Source of the DNA: Chitinophagaceae bacterium
GTDB lineage: Bacteria > Bacteroidota > Bacteroidia > Chitinophagales > Chitinophagaceae
Length of the DNA stretch: 33,367 bases
Assembly: GCA_947380605.1 (NCBI GenBank)
Contig: CANCRO010000024.1
Coordinates: 1 to 33,367, forward strand
Direction: 5' to 3'
Shown one piece after another: positions 18,047 to 28,049 of the stretch (positions within the stretch are counted from its first letter, which is position 1; each line of letters opens with the position of its first letter). The translations under genes were made by a program, and so were the position numbers. A model generated the notes under the pieces. The model was not told the origin of the DNA. It searched no databases and saw only the letters and a list, made by a program, of their open reading frames with translations.

Positions 18047-18264
18047 TTCATTTCTTTTTGACATCCATTATTCTTTTTCTTCTATTTTTCTTTTCCCCTC
18101 AAATAAAATAAATACAACTAATGTGACTGTTAGATTCAATTAGTCATTGGAAAAAAAAATACCATCTATAAAAAAAACGCTTGTGTTTACAGTATATATA
18201 TATTATTATTACAATATATTATAGATTAATACTATTGCTTTTACCTCAACAACCCTACCTAATA
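18047..18264 (+). other. AT-rich leader region ahead of the polysaccharide locus
   Basis: The gap between the aminotransferase stop and the small sorted protein is 311 nt. Its first part holds the terminator; the rest is very AT-rich, with homopolymer A runs near 18150-18175 and a TA-repeat stretch (about 18190-18225) that is nearly self-complementary. No exact TAnnTTTG element and no convincing gene is seen. An in-frame ATG at 18181 would extend the next gene but would put a long hydrophobic stretch ahead of its normal signal peptide, so I treat this DNA as untranslated. Confidence 0.5.
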
Positions 18265-18495
18265 ATGAAACAATTTCCAAAATTGGTTTTTGCATTTTGC
18301 ATAATCCTGTTTTTTTACTGCTCGATTCCTTCTACCTCTTTTGCTCAAGGTCCTGGTGACCCTAATTCACCTGGTGATCCTGGAGGTGACCCAGATGCAC
18401 CTATTGATGGTGGAATCGGTCTGTTGTTAGGAGCAGGAGTACTTTATGGTATCCATAAAATAAGGAGGGAGAAAAAAAGAGGACTCAGTAGTTAA
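18265..18495 (+). CDS. Small PID-CTERM-like cell-surface-sorted protein
   Basis: This 76-residue precursor has three parts. Residues 1-29 are a Sec signal peptide ending TSFAQ. Residues 30-48 are a short Gly/Pro/Asp spacer (GPGDPNSPGDPGGDPDA). Residues 49-76 are a sorting-type tail: the tripeptide PID, a hydrophobic helix (GGIGLLLGAGVLYGI) and a basic end (HKIRREKKRGLSS). The tail matches from memory the Bacteroidota PID-CTERM signal, thought to be processed by an exosortase-like membrane peptidase. After processing almost nothing but the spacer would remain, so the protein may be a tiny surface peptide, a carrier or a regulator. It heads the polysaccharide locus, 160 nt before the Wza-like gene. 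No exosortase is in the window. Confidence 0.75.
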   Translation: MKQFPKLVFAFCIILFFYCSIPSTSFAQGPGDPNSPGDPGGDPDAPIDGGIGLLLGAGVLYGIHKIRREKKRGLSS

Positions 18496-19449: not shown

Positions 19450-21840
19450 ATGAAAGAGGAACAATTTTTTAAGGAAATGCAAGCAACGAATATTTTTATT
19501 CAGTTGTTACAAAAATACTTGCCTTTTTGGCCTTTGTTTGCTTTAACGATTCCAATTTCAATGAGTGTTGCTTATGTTTATTATAGAGCCGAAGTGCCTA
19601 TTTACGTGGCTTCTGCAAAGGTATTACTTAAAGATCCTAACAAAGGATCGGGAGATTCTAAAGTATTAGATGCACTTAACATTTTTAGTGAAAAAAAGAT
19701 TGTAGAAAATGAAATTTTAGTTTTACGCTCTTCAGGATTGATGCAGGAAGTGGTTAGTTCACTTGATTTATATACAACCGTTTTTAACGAAGGTAAAGTG
19801 AGATTGGAAGAATTATATGGTGATAATACTCCGGTTAGTTTTGTAGCAGTTGAAAAAGAAGGGAATTATACTTTTGGAAAGTATCCATTTAAGATGGATT
19901 GGATAAATAAAAAAATAAATATTAATGGTGAGCAGGTAAACTTTACCGGAAAGGTATTATTGGGAAATACCTGGTATCGCCCTATAGTAAATATGACTTA
20001 TAGTAAGAATTTATCAGGTAAAAATTATTTTCTTATAACTAATTCTGTAAGTTCTGCTGCTGCCTCAATCATTAGAGATTTAAAGGCATCTCCTATATCT
20101 TCTTCTTCTACTGTTTTGGAAATAAAATTACTTACTCCTTTACCTGATAAGGGAAGAGATATTTTATACCGTCTTTTTGAAGTATATAATAAGGATGGTA
20201 TTGATGACAAGAATCAGATTGCTTCTAAGACTCTTAATTTTATTGACGATCGGTTGAACTATGTAATCCATCAGTTGGATAGTGTAGAAGAAAATATTGA
20301 AGCATATAAAAATCGTGAATCTTTATATAGTGTTGGCACACAAGGTGAGTTATATCTAACCGAAGTGCGTGAATTGGATAATAAGAAAGGAGAAGTCAAT
20401 TTACAATTGGAAATACTGCAAGACACTCGTGACTATGTTTTGAGTAAGGGTAGGAGGCCTGGAACTGTTCCTTCATTGTCTTTACTAACTGATGTTACCT
20501 TGAGTGGACTTTTGAGTGATTTGTATAAAGCAGAATATGATCTTGAAAATGCCTCTCGAGTGACTGGTGAAAATAGTGAACCTGTGCTGCAAGCAAAAGC
20601 CAAAATAAGTAGGTTGAAGTCCGATATATTGGAAAATATAGTTACCATTAAAAATAATTTGGTAACAGTAAAAAATAATATCAGTAAAAAATTAGCGCTC
20701 AATAATGGATTACTTCAGACGGTTCCTCAAAAGGAAAGGGGGCTTTTAGAAATCAGCCGACAACAAGTTATAAAAAATAACATTTATTCTTATTTACTTC
20801 AGAAGCGAGAAGAGACTGCTATTTCCTCTGCCTCTACATCGGCAGATCTTAGGGTTATTGAAACTCCAACGGTGACTGGTCCTGTAACACCTGTTGCAAA
20901 GAATTTTTATCTCACTGGTTTTATTATTGGTTTATTGATAGCAGTTTTTATGGTTTTAATGAAGGAGCAATTTAAAAGCAAAGTTTTATTTCGAGATGAT
21001 ATTGAGGATAAAACTTCTATTCCATTTGTCGGTGAGATTGCTCAATCCAATTCAAAGACCCCTATTGTTATTCAAGAAGGAAAAAGAACAGTTATTGCTG
21101 AACAACTTAGATCGCTTCGTACCAACCTTGCTTATATGGGTCTGAATGATCGACAAAAAACATTATTAATAACTTCTAGTATATCTAGTGAAGGGAAGAG
21201 TTTTCTGGCTATTAATCTGGCCATCAGTTTTACACTCACTGGTAAAAAAGTAGCCTTGATGGAAATGGATCTTCGCAAACCAAAGCTCAGTAGAATGATG
21301 AATGTGCCGCGTGATCCTGGAATATCAAACTATGTAGTGGGTAAAGCTGATATAAAACAAATTATTAGACCTACATCTATACCCAATTTATTTATTATAC
21401 CAGCTGGAGCAATTCCTCCGAATCCAACAGAGTTGATTGGAAAGCCTGCCTTTGGTGAAATGATGGATTTTATTAAAAAAGAGTTTGATTATGTTTTTAT
21501 AGATACGGCTCCGATTGGGCCAGTGATAGACGCACAGTTATTAAAAGACTATGCCGATGTTACCCTATATGTGATAAGACATGATCGAACACCCAAAATT
21601 TTCCTTAAAATGATTAATGAATTTAATCAGCAGAAAAAATTCAACAATATGTGTATTGTTTTCAATGGGGTTAAAAAACGGGGAATAAATTTAGGGCATT
21701 TGGGGAATGGCTATGGTTATGGATATGGCTATGGATATGGTTATGGATATAGCTATGGGTATGCTATAGAGGATAAAGAGAATAGTTTTCCTTCTTGGAA
21801 GCTGCTCTGGGAAAAGGGAAAACAGATAGTTAAGGGATAG
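19450..21840 (+). CDS. Wzc-like chain-length determinant and tyrosine autokinase
   Basis: This 796-residue inner-membrane protein fuses a Wzz-type chain-length regulator with a BY-kinase. The first membrane helix is at about 25-47 (FWPLFALTIPISMSVAYVYY). A long periplasmic coiled-coil region leads to a GNVR-type segment and the second helix at about 485-505. The cytoplasmic kinase has Walker A SSISSEGKSFLA (about 577-588), Walker A' ALMEMDLRKPKL (about 601-612) and Walker B YVFIDTAPIG (about 680). The tail (754-771) is nine tyrosines alternating with Gly or Ser, the autophosphorylation cluster expected for this family. It probably controls polymer length and export with the Wza-like protein upstream. 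Confidence 0.95.
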   Translation: MKEEQFFKEMQATNIFIQLLQKYLPFWPLFALTIPISMSVAYVYYRAEVPIYVASAKVLLKDPNKGSGDSKVLDALNIFSEKKIVENEILVLRSSGLMQEVVSSLDLYTTVFNEGKVRLEELYGDNTPVSFVAVEKEGNYTFGKYPFKMDWINKKININGEQVNFTGKVLLGNTWYRPIVNMTYSKNLSGKNYFLITNSVSSAAASIIRDLKASPISSSSTVLEIKLLTPLPDKGRDILYRLFEVYNKDGIDDKNQIASKTLNFIDDRLNYVIHQLDSVEENIEAYKNRESLYSVGTQGELYLTEVRELDNKKGEVNLQLEILQDTRDYVLSKGRRPGTVPSLSLLTDVTLSGLLSDLYKAEYDLENASRVTGENSEPVLQAKAKISRLKSDILENIVTIKNNLVTVKNNISKKLALNNGLLQTVPQKERGLLEISRQQVIKNNIYSYLLQKREETAISSASTSADLRVIETPTVTGPVTPVAKNFYLTGFIIGLLIAVFMVLMKEQFKSKVLFRDDIEDKTSIPFVGEIAQSNSKTPIVIQEGKRTVIAEQLRSLRTNLAYMGLNDRQKTLLITSSISSEGKSFLAINLAISFTLTGKKVALMEMDLRKPKLSRMMNVPRDPGISNYVVGKADIKQIIRPTSIPNLFIIPAGAIPPNPTELIGKPAFGEMMDFIKKEFDYVFIDTAPIGPVIDAQLLKDYADVTLYVIRHDRTPKIFLKMINEFNQQKKFNNMCIVFNGVKKRGINLGHLGNGYGYGYGYGYGYGYSYGYAIEDKENSFPSWKLLWEKGKQIVKG
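21709..21762 (+). repeat. Hexanucleotide array encoding the Gly-Tyr tail of Wzc
   Basis: Nine consecutive 6-nt units of the form GGN-TAT (one AGC-TAT) encode nine Gly/Ser-Tyr dipeptides. The unit keeps the reading frame if copies are gained or lost, so the number of phosphorylatable tyrosines could vary between strains. Confidence 0.85.
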
Positions 21841-21977: not shown

Positions 21978-22004
21978 CTTCAGTCAACCGGTGTGTGACT
22001 GAGG
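21978..22004 (+). other. Hairpin upstream of the UpxY-like gene
   Basis: CTTCAGTCA (21978-21986) pairs with TGACTGAGG (21996-22004) to give a 9-bp stem with one G-T pair and a 9-nt loop, ACCGGTGTG, containing an ACCGGT palindrome. It ends 17 nt before the ATG at 22022. No T-run follows, so it is not a terminator; a regulatory RNA or DNA site is possible. Confidence 0.5.
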
Positions 22005-22021
22005 GTAAGCAACGCTATATT

Positions 22022-22528
22022 ATGGAGAAAGATGATTTACATTGGTTTGCAGTTTATACTAAACCAAGATGGGAAAAAAAAGTGGCTAGTTTATTAGACG
22101 ATAATGGTATCGAAAATTATTGTCCTCTTAATAGGGTAGTAAAACAGTGGAGCGATCGTAAAAAAGTCATTTTAGAACCTTTGTTCAAGTCTTATGTATT
22201 TGTTAGGGTTAAGGATTCAGAGAAATGGGATCTTAAAAATATTAATGGAATCCTCAATTTTGTATATTGGCTTGGCAAGCCTGCAAAAATAAAGGACGAG
22301 GATATTTTTACAATTAAGAAATTTTTAAATGAATTTTCTGATGTACAGATTGAAGAGGTTTCTGGGTTAACAGTAAATTCTAAAGTAAGAATAAAACAAG
22401 GTTTATTAATGAATTATAATGGAGTGCTTGTTGAAATCAACGGAAGTAGGGCAAAGGTTAGAATTGAAACAATGGGGGTTCAATTGAGTGCCAACTTTGA
22501 TAAGAAAAATTTAGAACCTATTGTTTAA
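22022..22528 (+). CDS. UpxY/NusG-like transcription antiterminator
   Basis: This 168-residue specialised NusG paralogue should bind RNA polymerase and prevent premature termination in the long polysaccharide operon. The NGN domain spans about residues 5-110 (LHWFAVYTKPRWEKKVASLL, CPLNRVVKQWSDRKK, LEPLFKSYVFVRV). A KOW segment follows (VNSKVRIKQGLLMNYNGVLV). The start at 22022 places MEKDDLHWFAVYTK normally; an in-frame GTG at 21995 would lie inside the upstream hairpin. In Bacteroides, UpxY is first in capsule loci; here it comes fourth, after the sorted protein, Wza and Wzc, and just before the sugar-building genes. Confidence 0.9.
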   Translation: MEKDDLHWFAVYTKPRWEKKVASLLDDNGIENYCPLNRVVKQWSDRKKVILEPLFKSYVFVRVKDSEKWDLKNINGILNFVYWLGKPAKIKDEDIFTIKKFLNEFSDVQIEEVSGLTVNSKVRIKQGLLMNYNGVLVEINGSRAKVRIETMGVQLSANFDKKNLEPIV

Positions 22529-22645: not shown

Positions 22646-24430
22646 ATGTGTAGGATTGCAGGAATGCTGGATCACTCTTTGCCAATTGATGTTATTGAAA
22701 CTAAGGTAAAAGATATGTGTAGTATTCAGCAATCGGGTGGTCCCGATGAAGAGGGTATTTATTCTAATGCTCTCCATTCTGTAGTATTAGGGCATCGAAG
22801 ACTTTCAATCATTGATTTATCCACTACTGGTCAACAACCTATGTCTTTTGAAAAAGAAAGATATTGGATTACTTACAATGGTGAATTATACAACTATCTC
22901 GAATTAAGACAGGAGCTTTTATTGTTGGGATCCAAGTTTTCTGGAACTAGTGATACCGAAGTGATACTAGCTTCTTTTGCTACCTGGGGTACAGATGCTT
23001 TTGCTCGGTTTAACGGAATGTTTGCTTTTGCTATGTGGGATACTTTAAATCTAGAACTTTATTTAGTAAGAGATTCTGCAGGTATTAAACCTCTTTATTA
23101 TTCCATCACTAAAGATGGATTGGTCTTTGCATCTGAAGTGAAGGCTTTTAAAAATAATAAATTACTTCAAAATGAACATCCTAACTGGAAAGTGTATATG
23201 ATGGCTTATGGTCATTTACCAGAACCTATTACTACGATTCAAGGTGTTCATCCATTAGAAAAAGGAACCTGGTTAAAATACCAAGCACCTAGTAAAAAAT
23301 GTTTTGTTAAAAAGTATTTTCAAATTAGTTATACTGAAACTATATGTGATAGAAATGATGCCATTGAATTGATTAAAATTTCTTTATCAAAATCAGTAAA
23401 GCGACATCTCTTGGCCGATGCACCAATTGGAGTTTTTTTAAGTGGTGGATTAGATTCTAGTATTCTATCCGTATTGGCAAAAAAAGATCAGAAAGAATTA
23501 AAAACGATCTCACTTGACTTAGAGCAAAGTCAGTTTTCTGAAAAAAAATTCCAGCAGGCATTACAGCAACATTTAAATTGTAATCACTTTCAACATTTAC
23601 TAAAAGAGGATGATTTTCATCAATATTTACCAACAATTATTGAATCAATGGATCTTCCAAGTAGTGATGGAATTAATACTTGGTTTATAAGTAAGTATGC
23701 CAAGGAAAGTGGTTTAAAGTCAGTATTGTCTGGAATAGGAGGAGATGAATTATATGGAGGATATCCTTCTTTTAATCGTATTCGATCGGCATTGTTTTTT
23801 AAAAATTTTCCAAATGTTATTTTAAGAGCGGGCAAGTTTAGCGCATTGAAAAAATTTAGGAGACTGGTTTATCTAAGTATTGAGGGGCCGATAGGGCGCT
23901 ATCTTTTCTTACGCGGTCAGTTTACACCCAATGAAATCGCTATCCAGCTTGGGGCATATGAGCATGAAGTTTGGAAATTACTTTCCGAAAGTCCTGTATT
24001 GTCTGATATTGATCAATTGACACCACAAAATCAAGTAAGTTGGATGGAGACTAATTTGTACATGCAGAATCAATTGTTACGAGATGCGGATGTGATGAGT
24101 ATGGCCCATGGCCTTGAGATAAGAATGCCATTTTTAGATGCTGATTTTACTAAGCTTTCGCTTCAGATAAGTTCTACTGTAAAATATGATGGCATCCTAG
24201 GTAAACAATTATTGATTGATTCTTTTAAAGATATACTACCTGAGATTATTTGGAATAGGCCCAAGATGGGCTTTACATTTCCTTTTAAAAGCTGGCTGAT
24301 GAACAACAACTATGTTAGAGACTTACTTGGTAAAGACAGCCATGGAAATTATAAAAAATTTGAATCAGGAGAAATTCACTGGTCTCAATACCTAACCTCT
24401 ACATTAATAGCTCAACATCAACATGTCTGA
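22646..24430 (+). CDS. Glutamine-dependent asparagine synthase homologue (glycan-locus amidotransferase)
   Basis: This 594-residue AsnB-type protein has an N-terminal class II glutaminase (about 1-200) with the nucleophile Cys2 (MCRIAGML), plus GHRRLSIIDLS and TYNGELYNY. A C-terminal synthetase domain carries the pyrophosphate loop FLSGGLDSS (about 262-270) and LSGIGGDELYGGYP. Both sites look intact. Within polysaccharide loci such proteins are usually thought to amidate a sugar acid or a peptide-like substituent rather than to make free asparagine; that is inference from context. The GT4 gene starts 8 nt before the stop, indicating translational coupling. Confidence 0.88.
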   Translation: MCRIAGMLDHSLPIDVIETKVKDMCSIQQSGGPDEEGIYSNALHSVVLGHRRLSIIDLSTTGQQPMSFEKERYWITYNGELYNYLELRQELLLLGSKFSGTSDTEVILASFATWGTDAFARFNGMFAFAMWDTLNLELYLVRDSAGIKPLYYSITKDGLVFASEVKAFKNNKLLQNEHPNWKVYMMAYGHLPEPITTIQGVHPLEKGTWLKYQAPSKKCFVKKYFQISYTETICDRNDAIELIKISLSKSVKRHLLADAPIGVFLSGGLDSSILSVLAKKDQKELKTISLDLEQSQFSEKKFQQALQQHLNCNHFQHLLKEDDFHQYLPTIIESMDLPSSDGINTWFISKYAKESGLKSVLSGIGGDELYGGYPSFNRIRSALFFKNFPNVILRAGKFSALKKFRRLVYLSIEGPIGRYLFLRGQFTPNEIAIQLGAYEHEVWKLLSESPVLSDIDQLTPQNQVSWMETNLYMQNQLLRDADVMSMAHGLEIRMPFLDADFTKLSLQISSTVKYDGILGKQLLIDSFKDILPEIIWNRPKMGFTFPFKSWLMNNNYVRDLLGKDSHGNYKKFESGEIHWSQYLTSTLIAQHQHV

Positions 24431-25535
24431 AGGTACGCTGTTACTTACACTTAATATGTTTTCAGCTACTGGGGGCATTGAAAAAGTATCAAGAGTAGTT
24501 GGTAAGGCATTGCAAGATATAGCTTCTGAGAAATTGGGTGAAAAGGTTTGCGTTTATTCGATGTACGATAAGCAAGTGGATGTAGATGAAAGATATTTTC
24601 CAGCAGCTATATTCAGTGGGTTTGGAGAAAATAAATGGCGGTTTGTCTATGAAGCGGTTAGAAAGGGGATCAATAGTCGGCAGGTAATATTGAGTCACAG
24701 TAATTTATTACTACCTGGTTTTTTAATTAAAATATTTTCTCCCAAAACAAAATTGATTTTATTAGCTCATGGTATTGAAGTCTGGAATCAATTTTCATTT
24801 GTAAAAAAAATGATGCTAGGTAAATGCAGTGGTATAGTAGCGGTTAGTCATTTTACAAAAAATAAAATAGCGTCAGTTCAGAAATTATCTAACAATAGGG
24901 TTAGTGTTTTAAATAACTGCTTAAATCCATTTTTGGAACTTCCAATAAATAATGGCAAAGATGAATCCCTGTTACAACGATATGGTTTAAGCACACAAGA
25001 CAAGGTTTTGATGACTTTGACCCGTCTTTCATTTAAAGAGCAATATAAAGGATACGATAATGTATTGTATGCCATTAAAATGTTAATAATAAAATATCCT
25101 TCAATAAAATATTTAGTAGTAGGTAAATATGATCAAGCAGAACTTGAAAGGTTAAAGGTGATCATTGCTGAAATGAATTTACAATCACAAATAATCTTTA
25201 CTGGATTTATCTCTGATGATGAATTGGCAGCGCATTACAGTATTGCCGATTTATATATTATGCCTAGTAAAAAAGAAGGTTTCGGATTAGTATTTATAGA
25301 GGCTATGTATTATGGAAAGCCAGTAATTGCAGGTAATTTGGATGGTTCGGTGGATGCATTAGGGAACGGAGACTTTGGGCTGCTAGTGAATCCAAATGAG
25401 GTAGTTGAAATTGCAGAAGCCATTAATAAGGTTCTAGAAAATCAACAAGCGTATGTTCCCAAACGTGAGCAGGTAATAAAAAGATTTGGATATACCAATT
25501 ATAAAGAAAATTGGAATAAGATTCTAAACGATTAA
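24423..25535 (+). CDS. Glycosyltransferase, GT4 type
   Basis: This 370-residue retaining GT-B glycosyltransferase of the GT4 group adds a sugar from a nucleotide donor to the lipid-linked glycan on the cytoplasmic face. The acceptor-side motif GGIEKVSRVVG lies near the N-terminus and LAHGIEVWN in the middle of the N-domain. The C-domain has LTRLSFKEQYKGYD and the EX7E motif in EGFGLVFIEAMYYGKP. The donor and linkage cannot be read from sequence. Its ATG overlaps the asnB-like stop by 8 nt. The 40-bp tandem array begins within a few bases of its stop. Confidence 0.92.
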   Translation: MSEGTLLLTLNMFSATGGIEKVSRVVGKALQDIASEKLGEKVCVYSMYDKQVDVDERYFPAAIFSGFGENKWRFVYEAVRKGINSRQVILSHSNLLLPGFLIKIFSPKTKLILLAHGIEVWNQFSFVKKMMLGKCSGIVAVSHFTKNKIASVQKLSNNRVSVLNNCLNPFLELPINNGKDESLLQRYGLSTQDKVLMTLTRLSFKEQYKGYDNVLYAIKMLIIKYPSIKYLVVGKYDQAELERLKVIIAEMNLQSQIIFTGFISDDELAAHYSIADLYIMPSKKEGFGLVFIEAMYYGKPVIAGNLDGSVDALGNGDFGLLVNPNEVVEIAEAINKVLENQQAYVPKREQVIKRFGYTNYKENWNKILND

Positions 25536-25540
25536 GTCCC

Positions 25541-25880
25541 TAAACCTCTAAACCCAAAATTAATAATTTAATAAATATAATACTCTTCTAAACGCGAGAA
25601 TAATAATCTAATAAATACAATACTTCCCTAAACCCAAGAATAATAATCTAAAAATTCAATACTCCCCTAAACCCAAGAATAATAAACTAATAAATTTAAT
25701 ACTCCTCTAAATCCGAGAATAATAATTCAATAAATTTAATACTCCTCTAAACCCGAGAATAATAATCTAATAAATTCAATACTCCCCTAAACTCGTGCTT
25801 AATAAACTAATAAGTTTAATGAGCCTCTAAACCCGAAAATAATAACCCAACAAATTTAATAAGCCCCTAAACCCAACTTG
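25541..25880 (+). repeat. 40-bp direct tandem repeat array, about 8.5 copies
   Basis: The 342-nt gap between the GT4 stop and the wzm start consists almost wholly of contiguous, imperfect 40-bp units: 25541-25580, 25581-25620, 25621-25659 (39 bp), 25660-25699, 25700-25739, 25740-25779, 25780-25819 and 25820-25859, plus a partial unit, 25860-25880, that runs into the wzm TTG codon. Each unit opens with a core close to CTCTAAACCCGAGAATAAT and continues with an A/T-rich half ending AATTTAA or AATTCAA. The plus strand is very poor in G. The unit is not a multiple of 3 and is full of stops, so it is not coding. No spacers separate the units, which excludes a CRISPR. The role is unknown. Confidence 0.95.
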
Positions 25881-26741
25881 TCAACTACTCAAAAACCACC
25901 ACCAACCTGGGATTTAATCATCGAGCCAAAAGCTGCTTTATTGGATTTGAATATCAGTGAACTATGGCAATACCGAGATTTACTTTGGTTGTTTGTAAAG
26001 CGTGATTTTACTGCACAGTATAAGCAAACGATTCTTGGACCGCTATGGCATTTCATTCAACCGATATTTACCACGATTGTATTTTTAATGGTCTTTGGAA
26101 AAATTGCCAATATACCCACTGATGGAATTGAGCCAGTATTGTTTTATATGAGTGGCATTAGTATTTGGAATTATTTCAGTGCCTGTCTTACCACCACCTC
26201 TAATACATTTGTCGCCAATGCGGGTATTTTTGGAAAAGTATATTTTCCAAGGTTGGTAATGCCGCTCAGTTCAGTGATGAGTAATATGGTAAAGTTCGGG
26301 ATTCAATTTATTTTACTATTGGTAGTAATGGCATGGTTTGGTATGAAGCAGCATTATTTTTATATGGGTTCAAGTTGGTTACTGATTCCTTTATTGGTTG
26401 TGATGATGGCAGGAATGGGATTGGGATTAGGTATTATTATCTCTTCGCTCACCACTAAGTATCGAGACTTTACAGTGTTGATTGGATTTGCAGTTCAATT
26501 ACTCATGTACGCCACACCGATAGCCTATCCTTTATCATTTTTAAAGACTAAATCTTTTGCATCTTGGTTTACTTGGAATCCATTAACTCCGATTGTAGAA
26601 GCTTTTCGCTATTCTCTTTTTGGGACCGGTACGGTAGATTCATTGGGGTTGTTGTATAGTGGGGGATTTATTGTTGTTACGTTACTATTAGGTATGGTAT
26701 TTTTTAGCAAGGTGGAGCGGACTTTTATGGATACGGTTTAG
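25878..26741 (+). CDS. wzm: ABC-2 type polysaccharide export permease (Wzm-like)
   Basis: This 287-residue integral membrane protein is the permease of an ABC exporter that flips lipid-linked O-antigen or capsule glycan across the inner membrane. It has about six hydrophobic helices. Family motifs include RDLLWLFVKRDFTAQYKQT and LGPLWHFIQP on the cytoplasmic amphipathic region (about 32-60) and WNPLTPIVEAFRY near the C-terminus. The only possible start is TTG at 25878, the last codon of the tandem array: no in-frame ATG or GTG lies between a stop at 25860 and the conserved N-terminus. The ATPase gene follows after 30 nt. Confidence 0.93.
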   Translation: MSTTQKPPPTWDLIIEPKAALLDLNISELWQYRDLLWLFVKRDFTAQYKQTILGPLWHFIQPIFTTIVFLMVFGKIANIPTDGIEPVLFYMSGISIWNYFSACLTTTSNTFVANAGIFGKVYFPRLVMPLSSVMSNMVKFGIQFILLLVVMAWFGMKQHYFYMGSSWLLIPLLVVMMAGMGLGLGIIISSLTTKYRDFTVLIGFAVQLLMYATPIAYPLSFLKTKSFASWFTWNPLTPIVEAFRYSLFGTGTVDSLGLLYSGGFIVVTLLLGMVFFSKVERTFMDTV

Positions 26742-26771: not shown

Positions 26772-28049
26772 TTGAGTTCAGTTATTCAAGTAGAAAATCT
26801 TTCAAAGCAATATAGACTAGGTACTGTTGGAACAGGTTCTTTTTCGCATGACTTTAATAGAGCCTGGCATCGAATAAGGGGTAAGGAAGATCCTTATTTA
26901 AAAATTGGCGATGTCAACGACAGAACCCAGCGTGGAAAGAGCGATTATGTTTGGGCGCTAAAAGATATCAATTTCGAAGTGAAGCAGGGTGAAGTGATGG
27001 GTATCATTGGTCGAAATGGTGCAGGAAAAAGTACGCTATTAAAAATACTCAGTCGCACTACTTCCCCCAGTTCCGGATCTGTAAAAATAAAGGGGAGGGT
27101 AGCTAGTTTGTTAGAGGTAGGAACTGGTTTTCATCCTGAACTAAGTGGTAGGGATAATATTTTTTTAAATGGTGCCATACTAGGAATGAGTAAACAGGAA
27201 ATTAAATCCAAATTTGATGAGATTGTTGATTTTTCAGGGGTAGAGCGATACATTGATACGCCTGTAAAAAGATACTCCTCAGGTATGTATGTGCGGCTAG
27301 CATTTGGAGTCGCAGCACATTTAGAACCTGAGATTTTAATTGTGGATGAGGTACTTGCAGTGGGTGATGCGGAGTTTCAAAAAAAGGCATTGGGAAAGAT
27401 GAAAGAGGTTAGCACCAAAGAGGGGAGGACGGTATTGTTTGTGAGTCATAATATGGGTGCTATTAGGGCATTATGCCAGACAGCGATAATATTGAAAAAC
27501 GGCACTACTCATTATATTGGTGAAGTAGAAGATGGAGTTTCTAACTATTTACGAATTTCTTCTGAAAACTTTCAGGGTAGTCTTTTGAAAAGAACAGATA
27601 GAGAAGGGAACGGTAAATTTAAGTTTATTAATATAGATATCAAAAATGAGAAGGGCGAAAGGACGAATACATTATTCTGTAATGAAAGTGTAAGTTTTTT
27701 AATTCAATTTACTAGGGAGGGAATTGATGTTTCTAGGATAATATTATCATTAGGATTAAAAGATCAAAACAATGAATTGATTGCATTCTTTACTTCTGAT
27801 GAAATGGGCTTTTACTTGAATGAAGATAGTAATTGCTATCAATTAGATATTCCTCATCTGGCTCTGCGTGCAGGAGATTATTCTGTTTGGTTATTTGCAT
27901 CTTATCAGACAACTGATCCTAAAGATTTCTGCGATGTGATAGATTCAGCAATAATGATTTCTATTTTGCCTATCGACTTTTGGGTATCCGGTAAAATGAT
28001 ACGAGCTAGAAACACGGCTTTTTTTAATGGTATTTATTCACAACTATAA
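26772..28049 (+). CDS. wzt: Polysaccharide ABC exporter ATPase with Wzt C-terminal domain
   Basis: This 425-residue ATPase partners with the Wzm-like permease. Walker A is GRNGAGKST (about 80-88), the Q-loop region SLLEVGTGFHPELSG is typical of the Wzt/TagH group, the signature is KRYSSGM (about 167-173), and Walker B is ILIVDEVLAVGD. The C-terminal 170 residues (from about 255) form a beta-sandwich of the Wzt_C type, which in known systems binds the modified end of the glycan and so sets export specificity. The start is TTG at 26772; no nearby ATG gives a complete N-terminus. FkbM follows after 44 nt. Confidence 0.95.
   Translation: MSSVIQVENLSKQYRLGTVGTGSFSHDFNRAWHRIRGKEDPYLKIGDVNDRTQRGKSDYVWALKDINFEVKQGEVMGIIGRNGAGKSTLLKILSRTTSPSSGSVKIKGRVASLLEVGTGFHPELSGRDNIFLNGAILGMSKQEIKSKFDEIVDFSGVERYIDTPVKRYSSGMYVRLAFGVAAHLEPEILIVDEVLAVGDAEFQKKALGKMKEVSTKEGRTVLFVSHNMGAIRALCQTAIILKNGTTHYIGEVEDGVSNYLRISSENFQGSLLKRTDREGNGKFKFINIDIKNEKGERTNTLFCNESVSFLIQFTREGIDVSRIILSLGLKDQNNELIAFFTSDEMGFYLNEDSNCYQLDIPHLALRAGDYSVWLFASYQTTDPKDFCDVIDSAIMISILPIDFWVSGKMIRARNTAFFNGIYSQL

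What the first reader, a model, noticed from the sequence alone, without database searches (positions are those of the whole stretch)
25541..25880. 40-bp tandem repeat array filling the gap before wzm in a polysaccharide locus
About 8.5 contiguous imperfect 40-bp units occupy essentially the whole intergenic region between a GT4 gene and wzm, ending exactly at the wzm TTG start. The units have diverged (a few substitutions each, one 1-nt deletion), so the array is not recent, yet the period is held at 40 bp. The plus strand is nearly free of G. The last GT4 codons (ATT CTA AAC GAT TAA) resemble the repeat core, so the array may have grown from that gene end. It could act as a copy-number-variable expression switch for the exporter, a protein-binding array, or an RNA leader that separates two translation units.
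Basis: partly seen in the sequence, partly recalled or inferred. Interest (0 to 1): 0.62.

Follow-up and report, generated by a model that had tools for sequence, protein, structure and literature searches.

The report
Dispersed minisatellite leader before wzm gene
The gap before a sugar-polymer exporter gene in this bacterium is filled by eight imperfect copies of a ~40-letter repeat; the same repeat family sits in front of seven other genes in this genome and stays at the same genes in sister species, so it is a repeated, structure-free gene leader and not a switch special to this exporter.

Summary
In detail: eight units of 39-40 bp (25548-25866, plus an 11-nt remnant) fill the 342-bp gap between a GT4 gene and wzm and end at the wzm TTG codon; the sense strand is 5% G. 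It is not special to wzm. The same family, elsewhere with a 41-bp unit, occurs as seven further arrays in this genome, all upstream of a start codon in sense (rmlA, pdxH, an isomerase-like gene, an AraC-type gene, three paralogous secreted-protein genes). Of 93 genomes of the genus, essentially two others carry it; there, arrays sit at the same genes with other copy numbers, although rmlA fourfold sites are near saturation against the more distant one. The wzm array is a diverged, locally homogenised subfamily not seen at other wzm genes. The gap lacks a TAnnTTTG promoter element, lies in a UpxY-type polysaccharide cluster, and is nearly unstructured as RNA. Best reading: a slippage-grown minisatellite serving as a long unstructured intercistronic leader, with neutral filler a near rival. 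Other genus members carry CTAAACYY octamer arrays that point outward to gene boundaries and often form gap-spanning hairpins; that pattern is the more interesting lead.

The parts
25548..25877 (+). tandem array: eight CTAAAC-anchored units (40,40,39,40,40,40,40,40 bp) plus an 11-nt partial unit ending at the wzm start
25536..25877 (+). whole GT4-wzm intergenic gap (342 nt), 5% G, no TTTG/TAnnTTTG in sense, C exceeds G in every 78-nt window
25827..25866 (+). start-proximal full unit; the closest of the eight to the family profile built without the wzm units (score 30.8 against shuffles 11.9 +/- 2.0)
24423..25535 (+). upstream GT4 glycosyltransferase gene (Glycos_transf_1)
25878..26741 (+). wzm, ABC-2 polysaccharide export permease, TTG start directly after the array
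26772..28049 (+). wzt, ATP-binding subunit with Wzt_C domain
21995..22528 (+). UpxY-family transcription antiterminator gene of the same gene cluster (NF033644, 139.3 bits, cut-off 100)
22646..24430 (+). asparagine synthase-like gene, overlaps GT4 by 8 nt (co-transcription likely)

Best explanation
The array is one locus of a dispersed, lineage-specific minisatellite family (consensus about CTAAACYCGAATTTAAAAGNACNAANAATNATNATACTCNN, 39-43 bp) that occupies gaps upstream of start codons in a three-genome clade of a Ferruginibacter-like genus. SHOWN: family membership, sense orientation at all eight profiled arrays of this genome, conserved position at rmlA and other genes across species, absence of the usual -7 promoter motif in the wzm gap, near lack of RNA structure. 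INFERRED: it is transcribed as an untranslated spacer between GT4 and wzm in a UpxY-type polysaccharide operon, it grew by slippage or unequal exchange of units with local homogenisation, and its effect is to hold the wzm initiation region single-stranded and independent of upstream translation, in a phylum that initiates without Shine-Dalgarno pairing.
For: DNA similarity of the wzm array to four other arrays (E 1e-5 to 1e-7) and PSSM scores of its units against a profile built without them. Family restricted to G000, G045 and G019 among 93 genus genomes at strong scores. Arrays at the same orthologous gaps: rmlA in all three genomes (8, 5 and about 2 matched units), the isomerase-like gene in two (2 and 4), secreted-protein genes in all three, while rmlA fourfold sites are 64% identical G000-G045 and only 32-39% G000-G019. 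Six genes with arrays fall at the 0.2-8.8 percentile of pairing around the start among 624 genes. No consensus structure in the unit. Initiation in Bacteroidetes is SD-less and tuned by structure and upstream A (PMC6847099).
Against: No transcript or protein data. The openness follows from the G-poor composition and need not be selected; the array RNA is not less structured than its own shuffles. The wzm start itself is weak (TTG, C at -6), so enhancement is not evident from its context. The pdxH array lies upstream of a TATCTTTG promoter-like element, so it is probably not in the leader there. One G045 array is antisense, abutting the rmlB stop, and one (C98) has no start downstream; over independent loci the sense bias is 8 of 10 (p about 0.055). 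Orthologues of wzm work without any such array.
Confidence: 0.45

Rival explanations
1. Neutral gap-filling minisatellite. The repeats arise by slippage and ectopic copying, are tolerated in intergenic DNA mainly in the orientation that leaves no structure or promoter next to a start codon, and do nothing for wzm.
For: Present before unrelated genes; no such array at the wzm orthologues examined; copy number drifts between species; other taxa fill the same wzm gap with unrelated short repeats; arrays coincide with contig ends, as for unstable repeats (C66, G045 C106/C143).
Against: Persistence of the unit at the same genes although fourfold sites are near saturation against G019 is more than free drift predicts, unless ectopic conversion keeps re-seeding it.
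Confidence: 0.33
2. Rho entry point and polarity switch: the untranslated C>G stretch lets Rho load between GT4 and wzm, and the cluster's own UpxY antiterminator carries RNA polymerase past it.
For: C exceeds G by 8-18 in every 78-nt window; Rho gene present (632.6 bits); UpxY gene upstream in the same cluster; UpxY proteins prevent premature termination in capsule operon leaders (PMC7819879).
Against: No regular chain of six YC dimers at 9-13 nt spacing in the gap; other gaps and some coding stretches reach the same bubble score; known UpxY action is in leaders upstream of upxY; the family also occurs at genes such as pdxH with no link to UpxY.
Confidence: 0.12
3. Copy-number (phase-variation) switch for the exporter: gain or loss of 40-bp units changes spacing or expression of wzm within a population.
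For: Tandem array in front of a surface-polysaccharide export gene; copy number at orthologous genes differs between species.
Against: The units are about 80% alike, rather diverged for frequent slippage; no promoter motif inside or below the array to be spaced; the same family sits before housekeeping genes such as pdxH; no strain data available.
Confidence: 0.05
4. Single-arm remnant of a gap-spanning inverted repeat. Genus relatives carry (GTTTAGRR)n...(CTAAACYY)n hairpins whose arms abut the two flanking genes; at wzm only the right arm survived or expanded.
For: Polarity rule (56 of 70 octamer arrays end nearer the gene they point to, p 4e-7; 22 of 22 two-armed gaps in the order reverse-left, forward-right); the rmlB-S23-rmlA cassette has arrays at the same sites and polarity as octamers in G069 and as 41-mers in G045.
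Against: No reverse arm or inverted repeat around the wzm gap; octamer and 41-mer units share only the CTAAACYY core; the loci for one search were chosen by the motif.
Confidence: 0.05

Closest known systems
TAACTGA heptamer direct repeats of Beggiatoaceae, Cyanobacteria and some Bacteroidetes (MacGregor 2015, PMC4679880)
   Same: Intergenic direct repeats, in Beggiatoaceae and Flexibacter mostly in forward orientation and within a few to about 40 nt of a start codon, before genes of unrelated function, G-poor, overlapping where a ribosome site would be; a translational role was proposed there too.
   Different: Unit 39-43 bp instead of 7, another sequence, eight arrays instead of up to hundreds, position conserved across three species, diverged units.
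Bacterial minisatellites / VNTR loci
   Same: Head-to-tail array, imperfect units, copy number differs between species at the same locus, local homogenisation.
   Different: One sequence family at many gene starts with a preferred polarity; within-species variation unknown.
Cis leaders of UpxY/RfaH-controlled polysaccharide operons
   Same: Long untranslated stretch in a cluster that encodes a UpxY antiterminator.
   Different: Here it lies inside the cluster, downstream of upxY, and the repeat family also occurs at unrelated genes.
(CTAAACYY)n octamer gap elements of other genomes of this genus (described here)
   Same: Share the CTAAACYY core, the C-rich strand pointing at the gene boundary, and the rmlA and rmlB sites.
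   Different: 8-bp unit, often two inverted arms forming a hairpin.

Membership tests
CTAAAC 41-bp array family (defined here) | unit of 39-43 bp beginning CTAAAC, similar along its length to the family profile | tested here: met
   the wzm units are a diverged subfamily, 57-65% to other arrays
CTAAAC 41-bp array family (defined here) | array upstream of a start codon, in sense | tested here: met
   array remnant ends at 25877, TTG at 25878; all eight profiled arrays of the genome in sense
TAACTGA-type heptamer leader repeats | direct repeats of the heptamer TAACTGA | tested here: not met
   unit is 40 bp and begins CTAAAC
TAACTGA-type heptamer leader repeats | forward orientation close to start codons of functionally unrelated genes | tested here: met
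VNTR minisatellite | tandem array with constant period | tested here: met
VNTR minisatellite | copy number varies between strains of the species | not testable with these tools
   one genome per species held; only between-species variation seen
Rho utilisation site | C>G bubble in a stretch expected to be untranslated | tested here: met
Rho utilisation site | regularly spaced YC dimers | tested here: not met
   no chain of six YC at 9-13 nt spacing
Rho utilisation site | Rho-dependent termination in vivo | not testable with these tools
   needs RNA-seq with Rho inhibition
Gap-spanning inverted octamer hairpin | two inverted arms | tested here: not met
   no inverted repeat in 25400-26000

The most novel reading that the evidence does not exclude
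In this genus, CTAAAC-based repeats form a 'gene-boundary' system: arrays whose C-rich strand points outward to the neighbouring start or stop codon, whose unit length can switch (8 to 41 bp) while position and polarity at the same genes are kept, and which set the structure, translation or termination of the junction between adjacent genes.
Probability: 0.2. Interest if true: 0.7.

Novelty: new variant of a known kind. Interest (0 to 1): 0.42.

Why it matters
It shows non-coding tandem repeats kept at the same genes across species whose silent sites are nearly scrambled, ending at or close to the coding sequence. If the leader reading holds, it gives a natural copy-number series (about 2 to 8 units before orthologous genes) for testing how long unstructured leaders affect initiation and termination in bacteria that do not use Shine-Dalgarno pairing.

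Tried and rejected
Coding repeat: the period is not a multiple of 3 and TAA/TAG stops recur in the units, so rejected. Known RNA family: none in Rfam. tRNA: none. RNA structure of the unit: no pairs. Inverted repeat or terminator in the gap: none. Plasmid source: no match. Growth from the GT4 end: not significant. wzm coding start derived from the repeat: no (p 0.5). General property of gaps in this genome: no, the arrays are outliers (wzm and C89 gaps C-G 0.175-0.2 against mean 0.015, sd 0.05). S23-gene-associated mobile element: S23 genes occur in only 4 of 60 octamer loci, so not general. A literature search for tandem repeats in Ferruginibacter gave nothing relevant. The identity matrix printed counts shared gaps wrongly and is not used.

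Full report
WHAT IS THERE. The GT4-wzm gap (25536-25877, 342 nt) contains eight CTAAAC-anchored units of 39-40 bp from 25548, then an 11-nt remnant that ends at the wzm TTG. TRF gives period 40, 8.3 copies, 82% matches; lag-40 self-identity is 0.74, z about 30 against shuffles. Composition is 157 A, 91 T, 77 C, 17 G. The TTG start is supported by orthologues (L044, L046) that also begin TTGTCAA.

CONTEXT. The gap lies in a polysaccharide cluster: Wza-like export protein, Wzc-like kinase, UpxY antiterminator (NF033644, 139.3 bits against a cut-off of 100), asparagine synthase, GT4, wzm, wzt, FkbM methyltransferase, glycosyltransferases. No gap from 17954 to the end of the window carries the Bacteroidota -7 element TAnnTTTG (motif from my own knowledge) in sense; the wzm gap has not even a TTTG. 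This is weak evidence, since only 39% of divergent upstream regions have the strict motif (13% in shuffles), but with the 8-nt overlap of the asparagine synthase and GT4 genes it suggests one long transcript that crosses the array.

NOT SPECIFIC TO WZM. BLAST of the array in its own genome finds four more arrays (E 1e-5 to 1e-7); a spacing pattern and a profile model bring the count to eight arrays and about 48 units. The others precede rmlA (C66), pdxH (C17), an AraC-type HTH membrane protein gene (C89), a sugar isomerase-like gene (C68; function judged by eye, no Pfam match) and three paralogous secreted-protein genes starting MHLKS (C7, C39, C119). All eight are in sense with the gene they precede, from 0 to about 60 nt before the start. 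A ninth stretch, two reverse octamers at the very start of C66, is cut by the contig end. The unit elsewhere is 41 bp; wzm has a 40-bp subfamily, 80% alike internally and 57-65% to the others. Against a profile built without wzm units, its units score 14-31 (shuffles about 10.5 +/- 1.9), the start-proximal unit best.

DISTRIBUTION. Wzm relatives place the organism in or near Ferruginibacter. Of 93 genomes of the genus, strong matches occur only in G000, G045 and G019; seven others have one or two weak matches. In these three, arrays stand at the same genes: rmlA (8, 5 and about 2 matched units, G019 with two copies of the locus), the isomerase-like gene (2 in G000, 4 in G045), MHLKS genes (all three). 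G045 adds arrays before bcp and rmlB and one antisense array abutting the rmlB stop. rmlA fourfold sites are 64% identical between G000 and G045 and 32-39% between G000 and G019, yet units at MHLKS genes of different genomes are still 71-76% alike. Either the units are constrained or they are repeatedly re-seeded and homogenised. Over independent loci of the family the orientation is 8 in sense to a start against 2 not (p about 0.055), so the bias is suggestive only. Close wzm homologues were not found in G045 or G019, but the G019 GT4 orthologue runs off its contig, so that gap cannot be seen. The other wzm orthologues examined have no such array; several taxa, including two Chloroflexi MAGs, have unrelated G-poor short-period repeats before wzm.

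HOW IT MAY WORK. The sense RNA is nearly unstructured (-16.9 kcal/mol over 360 nt, against -70.3 for the other strand), although it is not less structured than its own shuffles. Genes with arrays have among the most open initiation regions in the genome sample: percentiles 0.2, 1.1, 2.6, 3.4, 3.7 (wzm) and 8.8 of 624 genes. In Bacteroidetes, initiation does not use Shine-Dalgarno pairing and is tuned by structure and upstream adenines (PMC6847099). I therefore read the array as an untranslated, structure-free leader that separates wzm from GT4. Whether this was selected or is a harmless result of which repeats are tolerated there is open; I give the leader reading 0.45 and neutral filler 0.33. 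Rho loading is possible (C>G in every 78-nt window, Rho and UpxY present), but the regular YC pattern is absent.

A WIDER PATTERN. Other genomes of the genus carry (CTAAACYY)n octamer arrays. In 60 gaps taken from them, arrays end nearer the gene boundary they point to in 56 of 70 cases (p 4e-7), and where both polarities occur in one gap the order is reverse-left, forward-right in 22 of 22; many of these gaps fold as one long hairpin. The rmlB-S23-rmlA cassette has octamers in G069 and 41-mers in G045 at the same sites with the same polarity. The wzm array may thus be a one-armed, long-unit version of a genus-wide boundary element. Limits: genes were called mechanically, loci were chosen by motif, and related loci are not all independent.

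COMPARISON WITH WHAT IS KNOWN. The nearest described kind is the TAACTGA heptamer repeats (PMC4679880): forward, next to start codons, before unrelated genes. Works-like is plausible; membership fails on the unit.

VERDICT. A real, diverged minisatellite, ordinary in kind, unusual in being a dispersed family tied to gene starts and kept at the same genes across species. A function specific to the exporter is not supported.

Noticed in passing
L208-L267 (other genomes of the genus), e.g. L223:1961-2057, L234:2043-2111, L214:1965-2060: Intergenic gaps filled by two inverted octamer arms (GTTTAGRR)n...(CTAAACYY)n that run from gene boundary to gene boundary and fold as long hairpins; 22 of 22 two-armed gaps have the same outward order.
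   Followed up: partly
L244:1983-2461 and L165:1378-2428: A 23S rRNA intervening-sequence-type protein gene (PF05635) sits between rmlB and rmlA, flanked by outward-pointing CTAAAC arrays; in L244 the rmlB stop codon TAG is itself part of the first GTTTAG unit.
   Followed up: partly
L003:1674-1740, L169:1444-1510, L006:1732-1800: The first about 18 codons of the MHLKS secreted-protein genes resemble the repeat unit (p about 0.005-0.05), as if start codon and N-terminus arose inside the array.
   Followed up: partly
L003:1352-1460, L004:1401-1489, L006:1413-1493: A G-rich, nearly C-free heptamer array (GTGAATG)n precedes the C-rich 41-bp array, with GTTTAG-T-CTAAAC or a close variant at the switch of strand asymmetry.
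   Followed up: no
L063 (Chloroflexi MAG), 120 nt before wzm: G-poor heptamer repeats (CTCAATCCTCAACA...) directly before the ATG of a Bacteroidota-like wzm in a Chloroflexi MAG.
   Followed up: no
window 18181-18495: PID-CTERM sorting-domain small protein at the head of the polysaccharide cluster (NF046080).
   Followed up: no
window 21707-21767: In-frame repeat at the end of the wzc-like kinase gene encoding a GYGYGYGYGYGYGYSYGYA tail.
   Followed up: no
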